A DNA stretch of 64,000 nt from Isoetes taiwanensis (lineage: Eukaryota > Streptophyta > Lycopodiopsida > Isoetales > Isoetaceae): NCBI GenBank assembly GCA_021234155.1, contig JAJEKV010000111.1, positions 2,238,968 through 2,302,967 on the forward strand, read 5' to 3'. The position numbers were made by a program, and so were the translations under genes. Shown one piece after another: positions 14,462 through 64,000 of the stretch. Under the pieces are notes generated by a model, which did no database searches, was not told the origin of the DNA, and saw only the letters and a program-made list of their open reading frames with translations. Every line of letters begins with the position of its first letter. The first letter of the stretch is position 1.

Positions 14462-14956
14462 CATTTGTTGCGATTATACAATTATACAATGAAAAAACTG
14501 TTTACGAATATGACAATCAACGCCCCAGCAAATAAACAACAATCTACAATGCACAATCCTCCTCTTTACATTCCAACATATATCTTATAGAGCCGCTCTT
14601 GTAAAAGGTGACGCATTCTAAAGGACTTTTTGGCACCTTACCTTTATAGAGCTATTCTACGCCCTCAAATTTATTTTAACGTCATCTTGTACCTTGTGTG
14701 ATTTTTATAAAGCTTTCACCCCTTTTTACCTTTTGTTTGTAGTGTGGGATGGGAATATTCTAACGAGAATGAAAAAATTACAAAAATTTGAAAATATTCC
14801 AATAAGTACTAAAAACAAGGTATTTGGCTCAATAGCAATAATTTGGCAAAATTGGAATCAGGCCCAACTTTTTCAATGGTTCTTGGGGTATAGCTTTTCG
14901 CGACAAAAATTATATGTTATTTTGGTGTTGATATCTTGGGGAGTAGTATATGCTTT

Positions 14957-15144
14957 GTTATTTTGGAAGCAGGGTTCCAAAATTGGTCATGGATGTTTGC
15001 CTTGTTTGATCTGGATGTGATTGGGCTGTTGTGGCAGTGAAACCCTTTTTGTTATTTTGGAAGCAGGGTTCCAAAATTGGTCATGGATGTTTGCCTTGTT
15101 TGATCTGGATGTGATTGGGCTGTTGTGGCAGTGAAACCCTTTTT
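14957..15144. repeat. 94-bp tandem duplication, two copies
   Basis: Units 14957-15050 and 15051-15144 both start GTTATTTTGGAAGCAGGGTT and appear identical by eye, so the duplication is recent. Each holds the short palindrome CCAAAATTGG. No gene is recognised in 14155-16104 apart from this repeat. Confidence 0.92.
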
Positions 15145-16104
15145 GTTTGCAGGGATCTTCACATGGCTTGCTACATCTGACTGTCTTTGACATGTTCGGC
15201 CTTGCTTCTTTGGTTCTTGTGGTTTTGGAGCTATGCATATGCCTTTGCCCGCTAATCTAAGTTCTTTGTTATAATGTGTAGTTATTCTTTATATTTACCT
15301 TAAATTGGTTTGTAATGCAAATGATTTTCCATCTAATGTCCCGGAGACCATTGTTACTTTCGATAATTCTAATCATGAGGTACCGCAAGCTTCGAAAAAT
15401 TCTAGCCCTTCCTTCTCCTTCATCTGGAGGTTATGCTTCTCTTCTGGAGGGTGCTCATCCCAAGAATTTCAAACCCAGATATGTGGATGGATTATGTGGT
15501 AGGTTGTCTGCATTTGTTTCGCTTGCTAAGGTTCTAAGTAATATCAAATGCTTGCATTGATTTGTGGCCAACTATCATAAACCATGGGAATCATAGACCA
15601 TTTACAAGCTAATCTATAATCACCAGGGCAGCTATGAGCAAAATGAGATCTCTACTAACGAGACACCAAAAGGCTATGAGTTGCTTTTGAGAGACCCTAC
15701 GCTAAATTATCCCTTGGGTCTCTATTAATTCTTTTGTTATCATTTGTTATAGGTTTTGTTGGACGCTCATGTGGAACATTATTCCATTCTATCATGTTAT
15801 ATAGATGGTGTTGAAATGACGACGACACCATTGTTTCTTTCTTCCTTTGTTCTGATGATTTTATAATGGTGTTCTTGATATGATGGCATCAACACCATGT
15901 GAGGTTGTGCTCTTGAAAATGTGCTCTTGGAAGTTATGACTAGAGAATTTGATTTATCTTTATACATTTTAGCATTAAATCAGGAAAATAAATAAATAGT
16001 CTGAGGTGCAAGTTTTAAACCCAGAGGAAAAAACAGTCCCTCTGTGTAAAGCTACCTGGGAGCCTCAGATAATCTATATATAGAAGGAACCTTTGATCTT
16101 AATT

Positions 16105-24322: not shown

Positions 24323-24640
24323 TGTGACAATTATAATGAAAGACCTTTTTCTTTTGTTGCAACTGTGAATCTCAACATAGTCGTGAGTAAAATGTATTTA
24401 GTCATGAAAATATGGAGTGCAAATGCCAAGAAAACACATGTAGTATACTATGTGACAATTATAATGAAAGACCTTTTTCTTTCCAAGAAAACACATGTAG
24501 TATACTATGTGACAATTATAATGAAAGACCTTTTTCTGTGGTTGCAACTGTGAATCTCAACATAGTCGTGAGTAAAATGCATTTAGTCATGAAAAGATGG
24601 AGTGCAAATGCCAAGAAAACACATGTAGTATACTATGTTT
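24323..24640. repeat. Tandem repeat, three units (128, 57 and about 131 bp)
   Basis: Units begin TGTGACAATTATAATGAAAG at 24323, 24451 and 24508. The first and third are full length and include TGAATCTCAACATAGTCGTG. The middle unit lacks the central part and joins the first 30 bases to the end of the unit (CCAAGAAAACACATGTAG). All three end with TAGTATACTA. Confidence 0.9.
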
Positions 24641-59055: not shown

Positions 59056-59276
59056 AAGGCGCCAAAAAAATACAAAAATAAAAAAAATATAAAAATTTAT
59101 ATACGGTCGGGCGCCGGTGGCATTATACGGGTTTCTATTGAAATTCTGAGATGCCAAAATGCAAGTGGCGCCCGAGTTGGATTTTGGGCAGTGACCCCCG
59201 CATCCGTACCCGACTTACTCTCCTAAATCTAAAGGTCAGCTCACCAACCCGTTCGAGCCCAGGACGGCCATCCAGG

Positions 59277-59301
59277 TTTAGGGTTTAGGGTTTAGGGTTT
59301 A
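59277..59301. repeat. Interstitial telomere-type repeat TTTAGGG
   Basis: Three complete and one partial copies of TTTAGGG, the plant telomere unit, lie head to tail inside the repeat-rich region. The array is too short to be a chromosome end. Confidence 0.9.
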
Positions 59302-59454: not shown

Positions 59455-60953
59455 CATCATAGCATCCCCAGCCAGGTAGGCTCTTGTGCACAGGCCGCAT
59501 TTCATCGTGTTTTTAAGGGTTCTATCTAGGAGCATCTCTACTTCTAGATGGCCTTTAGGTCTCTACCCCCTTTTACCCATACAACCGCGGGGAGGAACAA
59601 AAGAAAGCTATCCTTATACATCCATCCATCCATAGCTTGAATAGAACATAAAATAGAGATTCTAGAATGGGGCTCGCATGAAACCAACAAAACCGCCCAT
59701 GGATAGGCTTCTCATTCATCTCAAAGAGATTTTCTACAATGGTGGGCCGATGGATAGCCGCACATCATGCGAACTACCCACGAAAAAATAAAGGGAAAAT
59801 CCAATTATATCATTTGGACCCCAAAAATACAATGCTAATAGATGTGTGGTAAGGTGTGTACCGTAAAGCTTATCACCGAGATTAAAAAACCACCCTTTCG
59901 GTTTTCGAGGAAAAACCTAGTGATAAGCTTTTCGCAAGGGGCTTGACAAACGTAAGGCATAGAAATCGCTCCCAAAACCCATGCATGGAGAAGTCAAACA
60001 GATGCCGCCGCCAACCCACACGCACATCACCAACACAACAAAACGAGACAAAACAAACCTCCCAGAGTGGAGTGGGCTGATCCACGCGTGCCCAAAAAAC
60101 AAAACCTCTTCAAATAGAGGGGCTGGTCACGTGCGGGCACAAATACAATAAACAAAGAAGGGGGGAGGGTGGGTTCAAAGAGAATAAGGTATGCTGAGAG
60201 AAGAGGAAGCGCCGATGAGACGTTGATGCAGAACCGCGCCTAAAATAGCGAACTCCCAACCAGAAAGGGCATGCACCACATGCATGCTCACCCCATTCTA
60301 GAATGTCGATCCGATGTCTCGGATCGATGGATTTCTAGAATGGGGCTCGCATGAAACCAACAAACCGCCTGAATAACAGAGAACTTCCTTAACAAACTAG
60401 AATCGAGGACGAAGGTCACAGGATGAAGGCTAAAGAAGAGCCAAGGCCGAGAAAGGACATGCCACAACATGAAAGAAACGCCAAATTGGTCAAACCAAGC
60501 GGGGAAGAAGCCCTCCCTTTGGAAACAATTCAAAGAGAATAAGGTGCTGGCGAGAAAGAGGAAGCGCCGATGAGACGCTGATGCGTAACCGCCGCCTAAA
60601 ATAGCGAACTCCCAACCAGAAAGGGCATGCGCCGCATGCATGCATGCAAGACATGCATGCTCGCCCCATTCTAGAATGTCGATCCGATGTCTCGGATCGA
60701 TGGGATTAACCATACATCTATCCATACAAGGGTTAATCCTAGCTACCTTCTAAGCATACAAGGGTTAATCCTATGACTATCTAGGAATCCAAGCTGTCTA
60801 CATACTAACCGGGATCAAGCTAGGTCCACTATCGCTCGGGTTCTCCATCCTGCTGGCTGGAACAAGGTGCAACAGCCGCTCCTCCTCCACCAACCTCCCC
60901 CAATTCGAATTGGGGCAAATGGGGGTACAAAACCCCAATTTGGGTCCCACCAA
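59455..60953 (-). repeat. LTR-like repeat, right copy, interrupted by insertion
   Basis: Matches the left copy in two parts, 59457-59660 and 60704-60953, interrupted exactly where the left copy reads AGAGATTAACC. The insertion (59661-60703) is described separately. A 4-base GATT stands at both junctions. Confidence 0.82.
59661..60704. mobile_element. 1.04-kb insertion with internal tandem duplication
   Basis: The inserted DNA consists of two related units, 59661-60333 and 60334-60704. Both start TCTAGAATGGGGCTCGCATG and both end with ATTCTAGAATGTCGATCCGA and TCGGATCGATGG. The second is a shortened copy. Each end holds the hairpin CGATCCGA-TGTC-TCGGATCG (60307-60326, 60680-60699). The minus strand of the second unit is open for 145 codons (60725-60288), but it spans the junction and shows no motif. 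No terminal inverted repeats or transposase allow a class to be given. Confidence 0.7.
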
Positions 60954-61366
60954 GAATTGTTATTGGATTCAGATATCCATATCATTGCCTTTGATAATGA
61001 GGTCTACGCAAGTGATCGAGAAGGGCGAGCCCTTTTGGCAAAAGAGGGCTTATAGTTCCAAACGATAAAGATAAACTTACTCAAAAAAACACTGGGAAAT
61101 CATCTTCATGTCGATGCGGTTGGCCGTGATATAAATATTTGACTTGGGAAGTCATTTATATTAACACTTGACCTTATTTGCAGGTTTGCTTAGTGATAAG
61201 CATTGGGAAGGAACTTTACGGACAAGTTGTCAAGGATATGGATGCTAAAATTTGGATGCGGAATCTCAAATTATTTCCTATGGACAGACTTTTGGGTAAA
61301 GTTCGTAAGTTGATTTTCTTTATGCGGAATAGAGAATAAGAATTTTATTTCTTGTGTGTACCCATG

Positions 61367-61550
61367 GTAGATTGGTAATTACGATTGCAACGTAATAGGC
61401 CTGAACATGGTGCACTAATTGTGCATGCCTCTTGGTAGATTAGTAATTGTGTCTGCAGCACAATAGGCTTGAACAAGGGTGCATTAGATGTATATTTTTT
61501 AAGAGTGGTAATTGTGGTTGCAACACAATAGGCCTGACAAAAATTACATC
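61367..61550. repeat. Imperfect tandem repeat of about 70 bp
   Basis: Two and a half units share GGTAGATTGGTAATT, TTGCAACGTAATAGGCCTGA and a GTGCA word. They stand at about 61367-61433, 61434-61506 and 61507-61550. The hairpin array starts directly afterwards. Confidence 0.75.
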
Positions 61551-61551
61551 A

Positions 61552-61816
61552 GTATTGCGGAGATACAATAGTTTGGTATCGCGGAGATACAGTATCGCGG
61601 AGATATAATAGTTTGGTATCGTGGAGATACTGTATCGTGGAGATACAATCAAGTAGTACCGCGGAGGTACGAAAGATACTAAAGCACCGCGGAGGTACAA
61701 GGATATATCGTACTGCGGAAGTTCGCGGATATCCATAACTGCTTCTAGAGTTTTGCAGGGATCTAAGATAATGGGGACGTGGAGGTTCTAATAGGTATAA
61801 GGTACTGTGGAAGTAC
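61552..61816. repeat. Array of about ten 15-base hairpin repeats
   Basis: Units of a 5-base stem, GCGGA or GTGGA, and the complementary 5-base stem start at 61552, 61576, 61592, 61616, 61632, 61656, 61684, 61710, 61774 and 61802. The first six alternate with spacings of 24 and 16, a 40-bp higher-order period. Stems change on both sides together: GTATC/GATAC, GTACC/GGTAC and GTACT/AGTAC. The units at 61592, 61684, 61710 and 61774 have imperfect stems. Confidence 0.85.
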
Positions 61817-62583
61817 AATAACTTATATAACCATTCTTGAGTTCGTAGGGTCTAAGAACTCCCAGGTGTACGTTGAACATGGGACAATCACCTTGAGAAG
61901 GGATGGACCAAACTGGAACGTACTTGGACGATCGCGAACGATCTCTTTTTGAGAAGGAATGGACTGATATGGAGTCATAGTCCGTATCATAGCACGGGGG
62001 AGTGTTCCACGACGCTAGGGTTATGGGGCATGGCAAAATATGGCAAAGTTGTGGAACTATGACAAGGTTGTGATATCTAGGATGGGGTCGAGAACCATTG
62101 GTTGGAGAGATATCAAGGGGAATCAATGATCAAGCAAAAGAGGCGGACTATTTTGTACAAAAAGGCCATAGATAATATCCATATGATAAGTCATATAATC
62201 TAATTAAAGGCAAAGAGATATTTTGAGGAAAAAGGCAACCGCACGCTAAAAAGGCTAAAGTCGCAGAGAGATCTATAAATAGAACCGAAACTTCAATTGG
62301 ACATATCTCGGCAACCAGAGGTCGGATTGCAGCGACCTTTACCTCCAAGGAGATATGGAAGAGGGCCCAGTATTTGGGATATTGGTCTAGTTTTCGAATT
62401 AGGCACACATATCCTAATTCATCCAGAGTATGAGGGAGTAATGGCGAAAAAAGGTGGCGGGGCTCACAAATTACTTGCCATAGCGACTTCCGCAGTCTGC
62501 AATTGCTTTTATGATGTGTGGCTCACGTGGAGTAGTTAGACTAGCTGGAGGGCCAATAAGCCGAATATTGTCTTTGCCCAATG
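61817..62583. other. No gene recognised
   Basis: No coding motif. TATAAATAG at about 62273-62281 followed by ordinary unique sequence could be a TATA box of an LTR or lost promoter, but no transcript can be inferred. Confidence 0.4.
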
Positions 62584-62651
62584 GTCTGTGCGAGTAGCCA
62601 GATATTCTTTGCTCATGGTCTACGCGAGTAGCCGGATATTGTTCTTGAGCC
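62584..62651. repeat. 34-bp tandem duplication, two copies
   Basis: GTCTGTGCGAGTAGCCAGAT and GTCTACGCGAGTAGCCGGAT open two adjacent 34-base units, both continuing ATTNTT and TGCTCATG/TGAGC. Confidence 0.75.
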
Positions 62652-62879
62652 GGTTGCCATGTTTATTGCCATAACCTTGTGGACGGTTGGGTGGTTAAGC
62701 GTGCTCTTCAATGTATTTGTATGTAATATATGATAATTGGATCATGTTCTACAATTAAGAGGTTGTTGATCAGTTGAATAGTTTCTCTATAAACAATGAA
62801 TCGTATCAGGATTGATAGCGGAGATGATAAAATGGGCAGGGGACTCAGTTGTGCAAGTAATAATGCATATGTTGAATGA

Positions 62880-63215
62880 CGCAATTATAAATGGATTACC
62901 TGATACTTGGCAAGTAAACAGGTAGTTCCAATTTATAAAATAGAGGATAGGCATGATCCCAATAACTACAGAATGGTTATGGTTAGCAGCCTATTTGCCA
63001 AATTGTTTGCCACTATAGTGGAGCAAAAAGTAAGTAGGTGGGCCTTAAAGCGAATGATATGAGAGCGAAGAGGCGGGGCATGTTTTTCATCCAAAAAGGT
63101 CTACAATAGATCATCTGGTTACAATGTGGGCTGCCACTGAAAAAAGACCAAAATACCATTATTTGCTTTATTTTTAGACCTAACTAAGGCATTTGACATG
63201 GTCAGAAGAAAAGAT
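62880..63215 (+). pseudogene. Jockey-like LINE reverse transcriptase fragment
   Basis: The plus strand reads VVPIYKIEDRHDPNNYRMVM, then SSLFAKLFATIVEQKVSRWA, then LFLDLTKAFDMVRR with frame changes and stops. This is the fingers-to-motif-A part of a non-LTR reverse transcriptase (usual wording L-V-P-I-Y-K-K-G-D, D-x-x-N-Y-R, and F-x-D-x-x-K-A-F-D with the catalytic Asp). It differs from LINE-A and LINE-B, where motif A is LKLDFKRA. Only about 110 codons remain and no YADD motif follows. Confidence 0.75.
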
Positions 63216-63440
63216 ATATGGGGGTATATGAGCTTACTCTGTATCCATTTTATAGCATTCAATCCATCTTCGATCCGTGATGGATATTTGTGATCCGGCA
63301 TGAGTCTATAATTAGCAGAAACTATAATACAAGGACAACGATACATTTCCAGGGCTTCCTACAACATACAAACCTCTATGGAAGACGATTAAGACTAGAT
63401 TCTTTTTACTTCATAGAGAAGATGGTTTTGGAGCTTCTTC
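63216..63440 (-). pseudogene. Carboxylesterase (CXE/GID1-like alpha/beta hydrolase) fragment
   Basis: Two minus-strand pieces in different frames match plant carboxylesterases. LVLIVFHRGLYVVGSPG (about 63405-63350) corresponds to the oxyanion-hole region, normally F-F-H-G-G-G-F-x-x-G-S; two glycines are replaced. CIIVSANYRLMPDHKYPSRI and EDGLNAIKWIQSK (63331-63235) correspond to the conserved V-N-Y-R-L-A-P-E-H-x-x-P-A-x-x-E-D-G strand-helix. The catalytic Ser, Asp and His regions are absent because the sequence changes abruptly into the RT fragment at about 63216. Plant CXE proteins hydrolyse esters or, as GID1, bind gibberellin (known). This fragment cannot function. Confidence 0.75.
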
Positions 63441-64000
63441 ATTGGGCTGAAAACCCAAGCCCAAACTCCGATGCTTCATCAAAACCACATCCTTGCTTAT
63501 AACTCCAACTACAGGCTTCTCTGATGCCGGGCGTGTTTAAGTGAGGAAATGCGTTATGCGGCGATTGACGTATCCTCGTCCTGGAGCCTGAAGCAATCAA
63601 TGCATACAACCTGATAGTTCCCCGCATATTTGGGCGACCCCCATCTGGAAAGAAAATTCGAGAACATCCTTTATTTTTGCTATTATCTCTGGTCCTCCAA
63701 ATGGAATATTCACCTCATATTCCATCATCCACACTAATCTATGCCTTACATTCAGGATATTCCAAGCATATTCTGCAAACCCCACAACCTTGCCTAGGGT
63801 TTGCCCTTCGAGCAGCCTAACAAGTATGGTCAATTCCTTCCAAGGAATTCGAACACGTAAAAAAGACCTGATTTTGTTTCTTCTTTACAAATACAAATTG
63901 GTCGCTTGTACCTCACACGTGTGAACGACGGCTAAAATCGTTCGGCCCAGGGGGGGAATCCACCTTTCGACACACGTGCGATTCGAGACGAACAGAGAGA
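63441..64000. other. No gene recognised
   Basis: A minus-strand frame 63833-63597 (ILNVRHRLVWMMEYEVNIPF) lies upstream of the carboxylesterase fragment but does not match the expected N-terminus of that family. No other feature is visible up to the window end. Confidence 0.4.

What the first reader, a model, noticed from the sequence alone, without database searches (positions are those of the whole stretch)
61552..61816. Array of short hairpins with compensating stem changes and a 40-bp higher-order period
About ten 15-base units share the loop GCGGA/GTGGA while both stem arms change together (GTATC/GATAC, GTACC/GGTAC, GTACT/AGTAC). Co-variation implies that base pairing, in RNA or as DNA cruciform, was kept during divergence, or that the arms are copied from each other. 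The 24/16 alternation shows growth by dimer duplication.
Basis: partly seen in the sequence, partly recalled or inferred. Interest (0 to 1): 0.75.

Follow-up and report, generated by a model that had tools for sequence, protein, structure and literature searches.

The report
Retrotransposon RNA studded with same-loop hairpins
The reported hairpin array is part of a jumping element whose RNA can form about ten small hairpins with different stems but nearly the same five-base tip, as if the tip were a repeated docking site, perhaps for the protein that packages the element's RNA.

Summary
The array (61552-61816) is real. It is the 3' end of the internal region of a short LTR retrotransposon (3' LTR 61965-62808) with hundreds of copies or more. 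Genome-wide, units with matched arms outnumber one-sided ones (1902 to 98), mostly by descent; at single array positions one-sided decay dominates. The stronger result lies outside the array: the same pentaloop, G(C/T)GGA, caps hairpins with several unrelated stems across the element and LTR. Without array-type stems it is 37 of 95 sense sites in nine elements, against 1.8% of other positions; 0 of 11 antisense sites in ten elements; 0 of 11 and 0 of 12 in two gag frames. Two hairpins outside the array changed on both sides at matching places; covariation exceeds most controls but not the two strictest measures. Some relatives with the same LTR end and primer site encode a Ty3-type Gag, with the hairpins shortly behind gag. 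Best reading: RNA hairpins serving as dispersed protein-docking, packaging-like sites, Gag being the likeliest partner. The shared loop is shown; Gag binding is inferred. Folding energy shows no strand bias, and loop conservation is not significant after removing a sampling bias.

The parts
61117..61964 (+). 3' part of the internal region of a short LTR retrotransposon (this copy lacks the 5' part and 5' LTR)
   Evidence: BLAST to L008-L012 and L014 starts at 61117
61965..62808 (+). 3' LTR, 844 bp, TGATAT...GTATCA; in full copies the 5' LTR is followed by TGGTATCAGAGC, read as a Met-tRNA primer site (name recalled)
   Evidence: LTR pairs inside L009, L010, L011, L014
62273..62282 (+). TATA-like box CTATAAATAG inside the LTR, suggesting the sense direction
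   Evidence: TATAAATA also in the LTRs of L011 and L014
61552..61816 (+). array of ten GYGGA-loop hairpin units (the finding)
61550..61649 (+). 40-bp dimer repeat (24 + 16), 2.5 copies
61316..61336 (+). hairpin TTCTTTAT-GCGGA-ATAGAGAA, outside the array, same loop; paired changes and G.U pairs between copies
61250..61270 (+). partial hairpin ATTTGGAT-GCGGA-ATCTCAAA, same loop, imperfect stem
61378..61396 (+). hairpin ATTACG-ATTGCAA-CGTAAT (other loop) with paired changes at the matching place in other copies
61446..61464 (+). hairpin ATTGTG-TCTGCAG-CACAAT (other loop)
61511..61529 (+). hairpin ATTGTG-GTTGCAA-CACAAT (other loop)
61930..61943 (+). hairpin GATCG-CGAA-CGATC, just before the 3' LTR; loop CGGA in many other copies
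62135..62155 (+). LTR hairpin CAAAAGAG-GCGGA-CTATTTTG
62620..62631 (+). degenerate LTR hairpin whose loop reads GCGA here (CTAC-GCGA-GTAG); GCGGA in the 97% related copy L007

Best explanation
The array belongs to the sense RNA of a short, non-autonomous LTR retrotransposon family with Ty3-type Gag-coding relatives. The RNA can fold into about ten or more small hairpins that present one pentaloop, G(C/U)GGA, on different stems. Shown: the host element, the shared loop on several unrelated stems, its sense orientation in the ten elements tested, and double-sided changes at two matching places outside the array. Inferred: the loop is the recognised part and stems only display it; many copies of one RNA-binding protein dock on the RNA; the likeliest protein is the Gag of related elements, whose gene ends shortly before the hairpins; the result is selective packaging of these RNAs, including those of gag-less members, into Gag particles. 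The array grew by duplication of a 40-bp dimer, adding docking sites.
For: GYGGA sites form hairpins (at least 4 Watson-Crick pairs and at most 1 mismatch of 5) in 97 of 172 sense cases over ten elements chosen by hand, 0 of 11 antisense, other positions 1.3-2.1%; 3-5 stem classes per element (sums mine). Without array-type stems: 37 of 95 against 296 of 16,554 over nine elements, stems such as GCTAC/GTAGC, TGGTT/AACCA, AGATC/GATCT, TTTAT/ATAAA. Two gag frames: 0 of 11, 0 of 12. Hairpin at 61316, 18 distinct rows: 92.4% of cells paired, covariation 0.384 against 0.277 shuffled (0 of 500 as high), at most 0.187 slid; G.U 20 cells, A.C 2 cells. Hairpin at 61378, 8 distinct rows: 0.381 against 0.222 (2 of 500), at most 0.131 slid. 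Gag: Retrotrans_gag 1.2e-14, Ty3_capsid 3.8e-12; hairpins follow the gag region in L069, L082 with L090, L087 with L092. L068 has a 5-bp target duplication and LTRs 94.6% identical.
Against: No binding, expression or packaging data. The two strictest pair measures do not exceed shuffles: pairs changed on both sides 3 against mean 2.3 (197 of 500 as high) and further pair types 10 against 10.4 (431 of 500) at 61316; 2 against 1.4 (256 of 500) and 4 against 4.4 (462 of 500) at 61378. At 61378 G.U and A.C are 2 cells each. Folding is more stable than shuffles on both strands, without sense bias. Predicted pairing of single hairpins runs from 0 to 1 and is mostly low in the window copy. One of two antisense GYGGA sites of the window copy passes the looser hairpin test. 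At array positions one-sided changes dominate, A.C at least as common as G.U; genome-wide 58 U.G against 40 C.A, which CpG decay may explain. Lower variation of loops and stems is not significant without the copies chosen by the unit pattern. Four elements have only 2-3 non-array hairpins of 6-13 sites. A related gag-coding element (L075 with L091) with the same primer site has none in the part cut. No autonomous partner was found.
Confidence: 0.42

Rival explanations
1. The hairpins are RNA docking sites, but for a host RNA-binding protein (export, stability, translation or splicing), not for Gag.
For: The structural evidence fits equally; gag-less copies keep the hairpins; the L075-type gag element has none in the part cut.
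Against: Three gag-coding copies carry the array shortly behind gag; no host protein with this loop preference is known to me (recall, not searched beyond).
Confidence: 0.22
2. No function: imperfect palindromes were perfected by template switching (arm copied from arm) and multiplied by tandem duplication in a hypervariable region.
For: Dimer growth is visible; at array positions decay is one-sided; folding is symmetric between strands; the strictest covariation measures are not significant.
Against: It does not explain one loop on several unrelated stems in one orientation, nor 20 G.U against 2 A.C cells at 61316.
Confidence: 0.25
3. Double-stranded DNA sites for a dimeric regulator, with palindromic arms as half sites.
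For: Arms contain GTAC or GATAC; part of the hairpins are in the LTR.
Against: Arms vary while the asymmetric spacer is constant and orientated, the reverse of a dimer site.
Confidence: 0.05
4. Hairpins serve the element against or through small-RNA silencing.
For: Structured, repeated RNA is a plausible Dicer substrate (recalled; no call).
Against: Stems of 5 to 8 pairs are too short for Dicer (recalled); this does not need a shared loop.
Confidence: 0.04

Closest known systems
Dispersed packaging signals of single-stranded RNA viruses (for example MS2, satellite tobacco necrosis virus, hepatitis B virus with RGAG loops, human parechovirus)
   Same: [quoted passage not shown] PMC7612645, start of abstract in the listing).
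   Different: Here in an LTR retrotransposon, partly as a tandem array, and no binding shown. PMC6281560 only suggests that such assembly may occur with Gag-like proteins.
Hypervariable 3' UTR tandem repeats of Tat/Ogre and Retand LTR retrotransposons
   Same: Tandem repeats between the coding region and the 3' LTR, variable in sequence and length (PMC7004042, passages; PMC11963269, passages).
   Different: The main text of PMC11963269 holds 'hairpin', 'stem-loop' and 'packaging' 0 times. Here no pol was seen, and the loop also occurs outside the array and in the LTR.
TR-GAG and LARD non-autonomous LTR retrotransposons
   Same: LTR pair, primer site, gag only or no coding domain (definitions in PMC6022998, passages).
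   Different: The passages read do not mention repeated-loop hairpins.
Ty1 RNA packaging and dimerization hairpins
   Same: RNA hairpins of an LTR retrotransposon proposed to act in dimerization and packaging (PMC5454406, abstract and passages).
   Different: Ty1 uses two kissing hairpins in a pseudoknot at the 5' end; GYGGA is not self-complementary and lies mainly 3'.
CsrB/RsmZ-type RNAs with GGA motifs
   Same: RNAs that sequester a protein binding GGA motifs (starts of abstracts in the listing); several GGA hairpins per RNA (recalled).
   Different: Bacterial; the partner protein family was not looked for here.

Membership tests
LTR retrotransposon (TR-GAG / LARD type) | two near-identical LTRs in direct order with TG...CA ends | tested here: met
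   L011, L014, L068
LTR retrotransposon (TR-GAG / LARD type) | primer binding site next to the 5' LTR | tested here: met
   TGGTATCAGAGC two bases after the LTR; 277 exact matches of LTR end plus site, 0 control
LTR retrotransposon (TR-GAG / LARD type) | target site duplication | tested here: met
   TTAGC on both sides of L068; L014 shows none; these two were looked at
TR-GAG | gag as the only coding domain | tested here: inconclusive
   gag in L082 by Pfam; in L069 the array and LTR follow soon after the gag region; one Gag was scanned, pol was not sought by profile
LARD | no coding domain, length at least 2000 bp | tested here: inconclusive
   L011: longest stop-to-stop frame inside the element 130 aa, element about 2.77 kb; no profile scan of these frames
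Tat/Ogre/Retand hypervariable 3' UTR | tandem repeats between coding region and 3' LTR | tested here: met
Tat/Ogre/Retand hypervariable 3' UTR | pol of the Tat lineage | not tested
   no pol was sought by profile
Dispersed packaging signals | many stem-loops with a shared loop motif and varied stems | tested here: met
   by sequence; folding prediction is mixed
Dispersed packaging signals | the loop binds the coat (Gag) protein | not testable with these tools
   needs a binding assay
Rfam RNA family | match above gathering score | tested here: not met
   0 matches in the window

The most novel reading that the evidence does not exclude
An LTR retrotransposon family with Ty3-type Gag uses a repeated-loop RNA code: about ten hairpins with independent stems and a common G(C/U)GGA pentaloop act as dispersed Gag packaging signals, shared by gag-coding and gag-less members, and their number evolves by tandem dimer duplication. 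In the listings I saw no report of this for an LTR retrotransposon; the listed papers were not read in full.
Probability: 0.36. Interest if true: 0.8.

Novelty: new variant of a known kind. Interest (0 to 1): 0.6.

Why it matters
What marks an RNA for packaging into retrotransposon particles is little known (so PMC5454406, passage). A family in which one loop is displayed on many unrelated stems gives a direct, cheap test: one loop, one Gag, binding or not. It would also explain how gag-less members borrow Gag, and link the variable 3' repeats of plant retrotransposons to a function.

Tried and rejected
Rfam: 0 matches. Coding role: frames over the array are at most 112 aa; not profile-scanned. 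Double-stranded regulator site: the constant asymmetric spacer argues against it. Strand preference by folding energy: none. Wobble preference inside the array: none clear. Loop and stem conservation looked significant on 53 copies, but 24 of these came from places picked by an exact unit pattern; on the other 29 it is not, so I drop it. Alifold on the whole array alignment gave a poor consensus, probably because unit number varies. Kissing-loop dimerization: GYGGA cannot pair with itself; three other hairpins (61378, 61446, 61511) have self-complementary TTGCAA or CTGCAG in the loop, but several other copies have GTTATTG-like loops instead, so it is not claimed. Autonomous partner: the three 5-kb stretches cut behind gag-coding copies show no long frame recognised as pol by eye; not profile-scanned. 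PDB search with Gag: best E 0.92.

Rows dropped and choices made. For the 61316 hairpin a fuzzy match (up to 3 changes in the inner 15 bases), with further filters on loop and arm, gave 40 distinct 45-mers. Three in another context (L076, L050, L057) were left out; 37 were aligned (not used for counts because of gaps in the stem), and 24 of the 37, chosen to keep the distinct 21-mers, were counted. Only the three outer pairs are free of that choice; two of the three pairs with double-sided change (pairs 1 and 3) are there. For the 61378 hairpin 15 of 26 anchored rows were used; the others were the neighbouring hairpin, unrelated, or empty. L001-L004 and L013 were left out of unit counts as repeats of other loci or flank; L018 and L024 out of some. 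The elements of the loop census were chosen by hand: ten, nine (L069, mostly gag, left out). The 20 stretches were picked from the 100 listed of 277 places, partly because no array was listed nearby, so their shares are not frequencies. Odds: best explanation and novel case were set slightly lower, and the neutral rival slightly higher, after rechecking the strict measures.

Full report
What was checked. The window is part of contig C921 of a 1.66-Gb genome; the species was not identified. The reported units are there: ten 15-mers at 61552-61816 with loops GCGGA or GTGGA, five with perfect stems of three kinds, the rest with a wobble or mismatch. The 40-bp period is found by TRF, but the 24/16 alternation holds for the first five intervals only. 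The unit pattern has 1424 exact matches genome-wide against 36 for the reversed control.

What carries it. A 1601-base query around the array has 2271 first-look candidates, of which 40 were scored; the best other copy is 97% identical. Eight places (seven with copies, one the stretch beyond the window) were cut out and compared: they show LTR pairs, an internal region of about 1.05-1.08 kb in L011 and L014, and head-to-tail LTR-internal arrays such as L008 with a 1.9-kb period. In the window the LTR is 61965-62808 (TGATAT...GTATCA), with a TATA-like box at 62273; this copy lacks the 5' part. Full copies have TGGTATCAGAGC two bases after the 5' LTR, which I recall as the usual Met-tRNA primer site of plant elements. 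L068 has a 5-base target duplication TTAGC, L014 none. LTRs are 94.6% identical in L068 and 97.3% in L014.

Groups, split by eye without a tree. A: the window and most loci found by whole-region similarity (LTR about 844 bp). B: L066-L068 and many of L015-L045 (LTR about 0.97 kb in L068). Gag-coding members: found through the LTR end plus primer site, which has 277 exact matches, 0 in the control. Of 20 stretches cut behind that site, five (L073, L074, L082, L087, L089) match the internal region of L069 over most of their length, L070 over 0.37 kb, ten match A or B, two (L075, L085) encode a related but distinct Gag, and two (L084, L088) match none. The L082 frame (393 aa, open to the end of the cut) matches Retrotrans_gag (1.2e-14) and Ty3_capsid (3.8e-12) and has a CCHC-like motif of spacing C-2-C-3-H-4-C (by eye). 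The gag frames of L069 and L087 are broken, those of L082 and L089 open. In L069, in L082 with L090, and in L087 with L092, the first hairpin lies within about 120 bases of the gag region or of the cut, and hairpins continue to the 3' LTR. The L075 type has no GYGGA hairpin in the 1037 bases cut up to its presumed 3' LTR end (0 of 2 sites).

Same loop, unrelated stems. In ten hand-chosen elements, sense GYGGA sites are hairpins in 97 of 172 cases; antisense 0 of 11; other positions 1.3-2.1% (sums mine). GTGGA, in one element tied with GCGGA, is the commonest hairpin loop of five bases in each. With the looser test, one of two antisense sites of the window copy also passes. Because the loop was taken from the finding, I removed all array-type stems: 37 of 95 remaining sites are hairpins against 296 of 16,554 other positions, over nine elements, single p-values from 1.1e-2 to 6.7e-10. 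The elements are related, so these values are not independent. Stems include GCTAC/GTAGC and TCTAC/GTAGC (A LTR), TGGTT/AACCA (LTR of B and gag members), AGATC/GATCT, CTTTC/GAATG, TTTAT/ATAAA and GAAAC/GGTTC. Two gag frames serve as inner controls: 0 of 11 and 0 of 12.

Pairing at matching places. At 61316 the stem is TTCTTTAT/ATAGAGAA in most A copies and in L068, and ATTTTTAT/ATAAAAAT in L066, L069 and other copies: pairs 1 and 3 differ on both sides; L067 and L029 have a mismatch at pair 3 instead. Of 24 rows, 18 were distinct: 92.4% of cells paired, covariation 0.384 against 0.277 in shuffles (0 of 500 as high), 0.071-0.187 when slid; but the pairs changed on both sides (3; 197 of 500 as high) and the further pair types (10; 431 of 500) do not exceed the shuffles. 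Departures from Watson-Crick are G.U in 20 cells, A.C in 2, other in 9. At 61378 (loop ATTGCAA) the stem is ATTACG/CGTAAT, ATTATG/CATAAT, ACTATG/CATAGT, or ACTACG/CGTAGC with the outer pair lost: 8 distinct rows, covariation 0.381 against 0.222 (2 of 500), at most 0.131 when slid; pairs changed on both sides 2 (256 of 500) and types 4 (462 of 500) do not exceed the shuffles. The tool's own trials make the counts of pairs and types the more robust measures, so this is support and not proof.

The array itself. Genome-wide: arm pair 4 matched 1401, one-sided 11 (U.G) and 12 (C.A); arm pair 5 matched 501 (CT/AG), one-sided 47 (U.G) and 28 (C.A); the reversed-pattern controls of the one-sided patterns were 11, 1, 1 and 11. 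One-sided units are rare, but the matched classes descend from few events. By position, with flanks as anchors, most changes are one-sided; by hand count 36 rows with A.C and 22 with G.U at four positions, one lineage (GCACC/GGTAC) making up about half of the A.C rows. This is expected from decay of dead copies. One position has a double change, GCACC/GGTGC, in 3 rows and GCACT/GGTGC in one, among 54 anchored rows that include off-target ones.

Folding and conservation. Twelve of 53 3' regions were folded: 2.8 to 7.9 sd below dinucleotide shuffles in sense and 1.8 to 10.2 in antisense. Pair probabilities of single hairpins, in five regions, vary between 0 and 1 and are mostly low in the window copy. 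Lower variation of loops and stems is not significant after removing copies chosen by the unit pattern (compare).

Reading. The loop is constant, asymmetric and in the sense direction, while stems differ; this is the reverse of a duplex-DNA dimer site and fits an RNA loop shown on interchangeable stems. Many such loops on one RNA suggest gathering of many copies of one protein. Gag is the likeliest, since relatives code for it shortly before the hairpins, and gag-less members would need it; that step is inference. The loop G-Y-G-G-A could adopt a GNRA-like fold with one base out (recalled; not tested); in the window's LTR one such hairpin has become a GCGA tetraloop.

What is known. Dispersed packaging signals with shared loop motifs are described for RNA viruses, and a review suggests they may occur with Gag-like proteins (PMC6281560, passages). 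Tandem repeats near the 3' LTR are known in Tat/Ogre and Retand elements (PMC7004042, PMC11963269, passages). I saw no description of repeated same-loop hairpins in LTR retrotransposons in the listings; most papers of subscription journals are not held.

Noticed in passing
window 60948-63644 and 63673 to beyond the window end: 97.4% and 98.2% match to L007 (C1040), reaching beyond the LTR on the 3' side: the truncated element lies in a larger duplicated segment.
   Followed up: partly
window 61378-61529: Second family of three hairpins with loops ATTGCAA, TCTGCAG, GTTGCAA and paired stem changes; loops hold self-complementary hexamers here but not in several other copies.
   Followed up: partly
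L008 (C1100), L067 (C64), C235:433005-448188: Head-to-tail arrays of LTR-internal units of about 1.9 to 2.2 kb, several copies in a row.
   Followed up: no
window 59275-59301: Short run of GGTTTAG, like the plant telomere repeat as I recall it.
   Followed up: no
window 14954-15147 and 24426-24537: Perfect tandem duplications of 94 and 57 bp (TRF).
   Followed up: no
L075 with L091, and L085: Related gag-coding element with the same primer site but a distinct Gag; no GYGGA hairpins in the part cut of L075/L091.
   Followed up: partly
window 61930-61943 and kin in other copies: Hairpin GATCG-CGGA-CGATC just before the 3' LTR, stem of 8 pairs in many B copies and 5 in A.
   Followed up: partly
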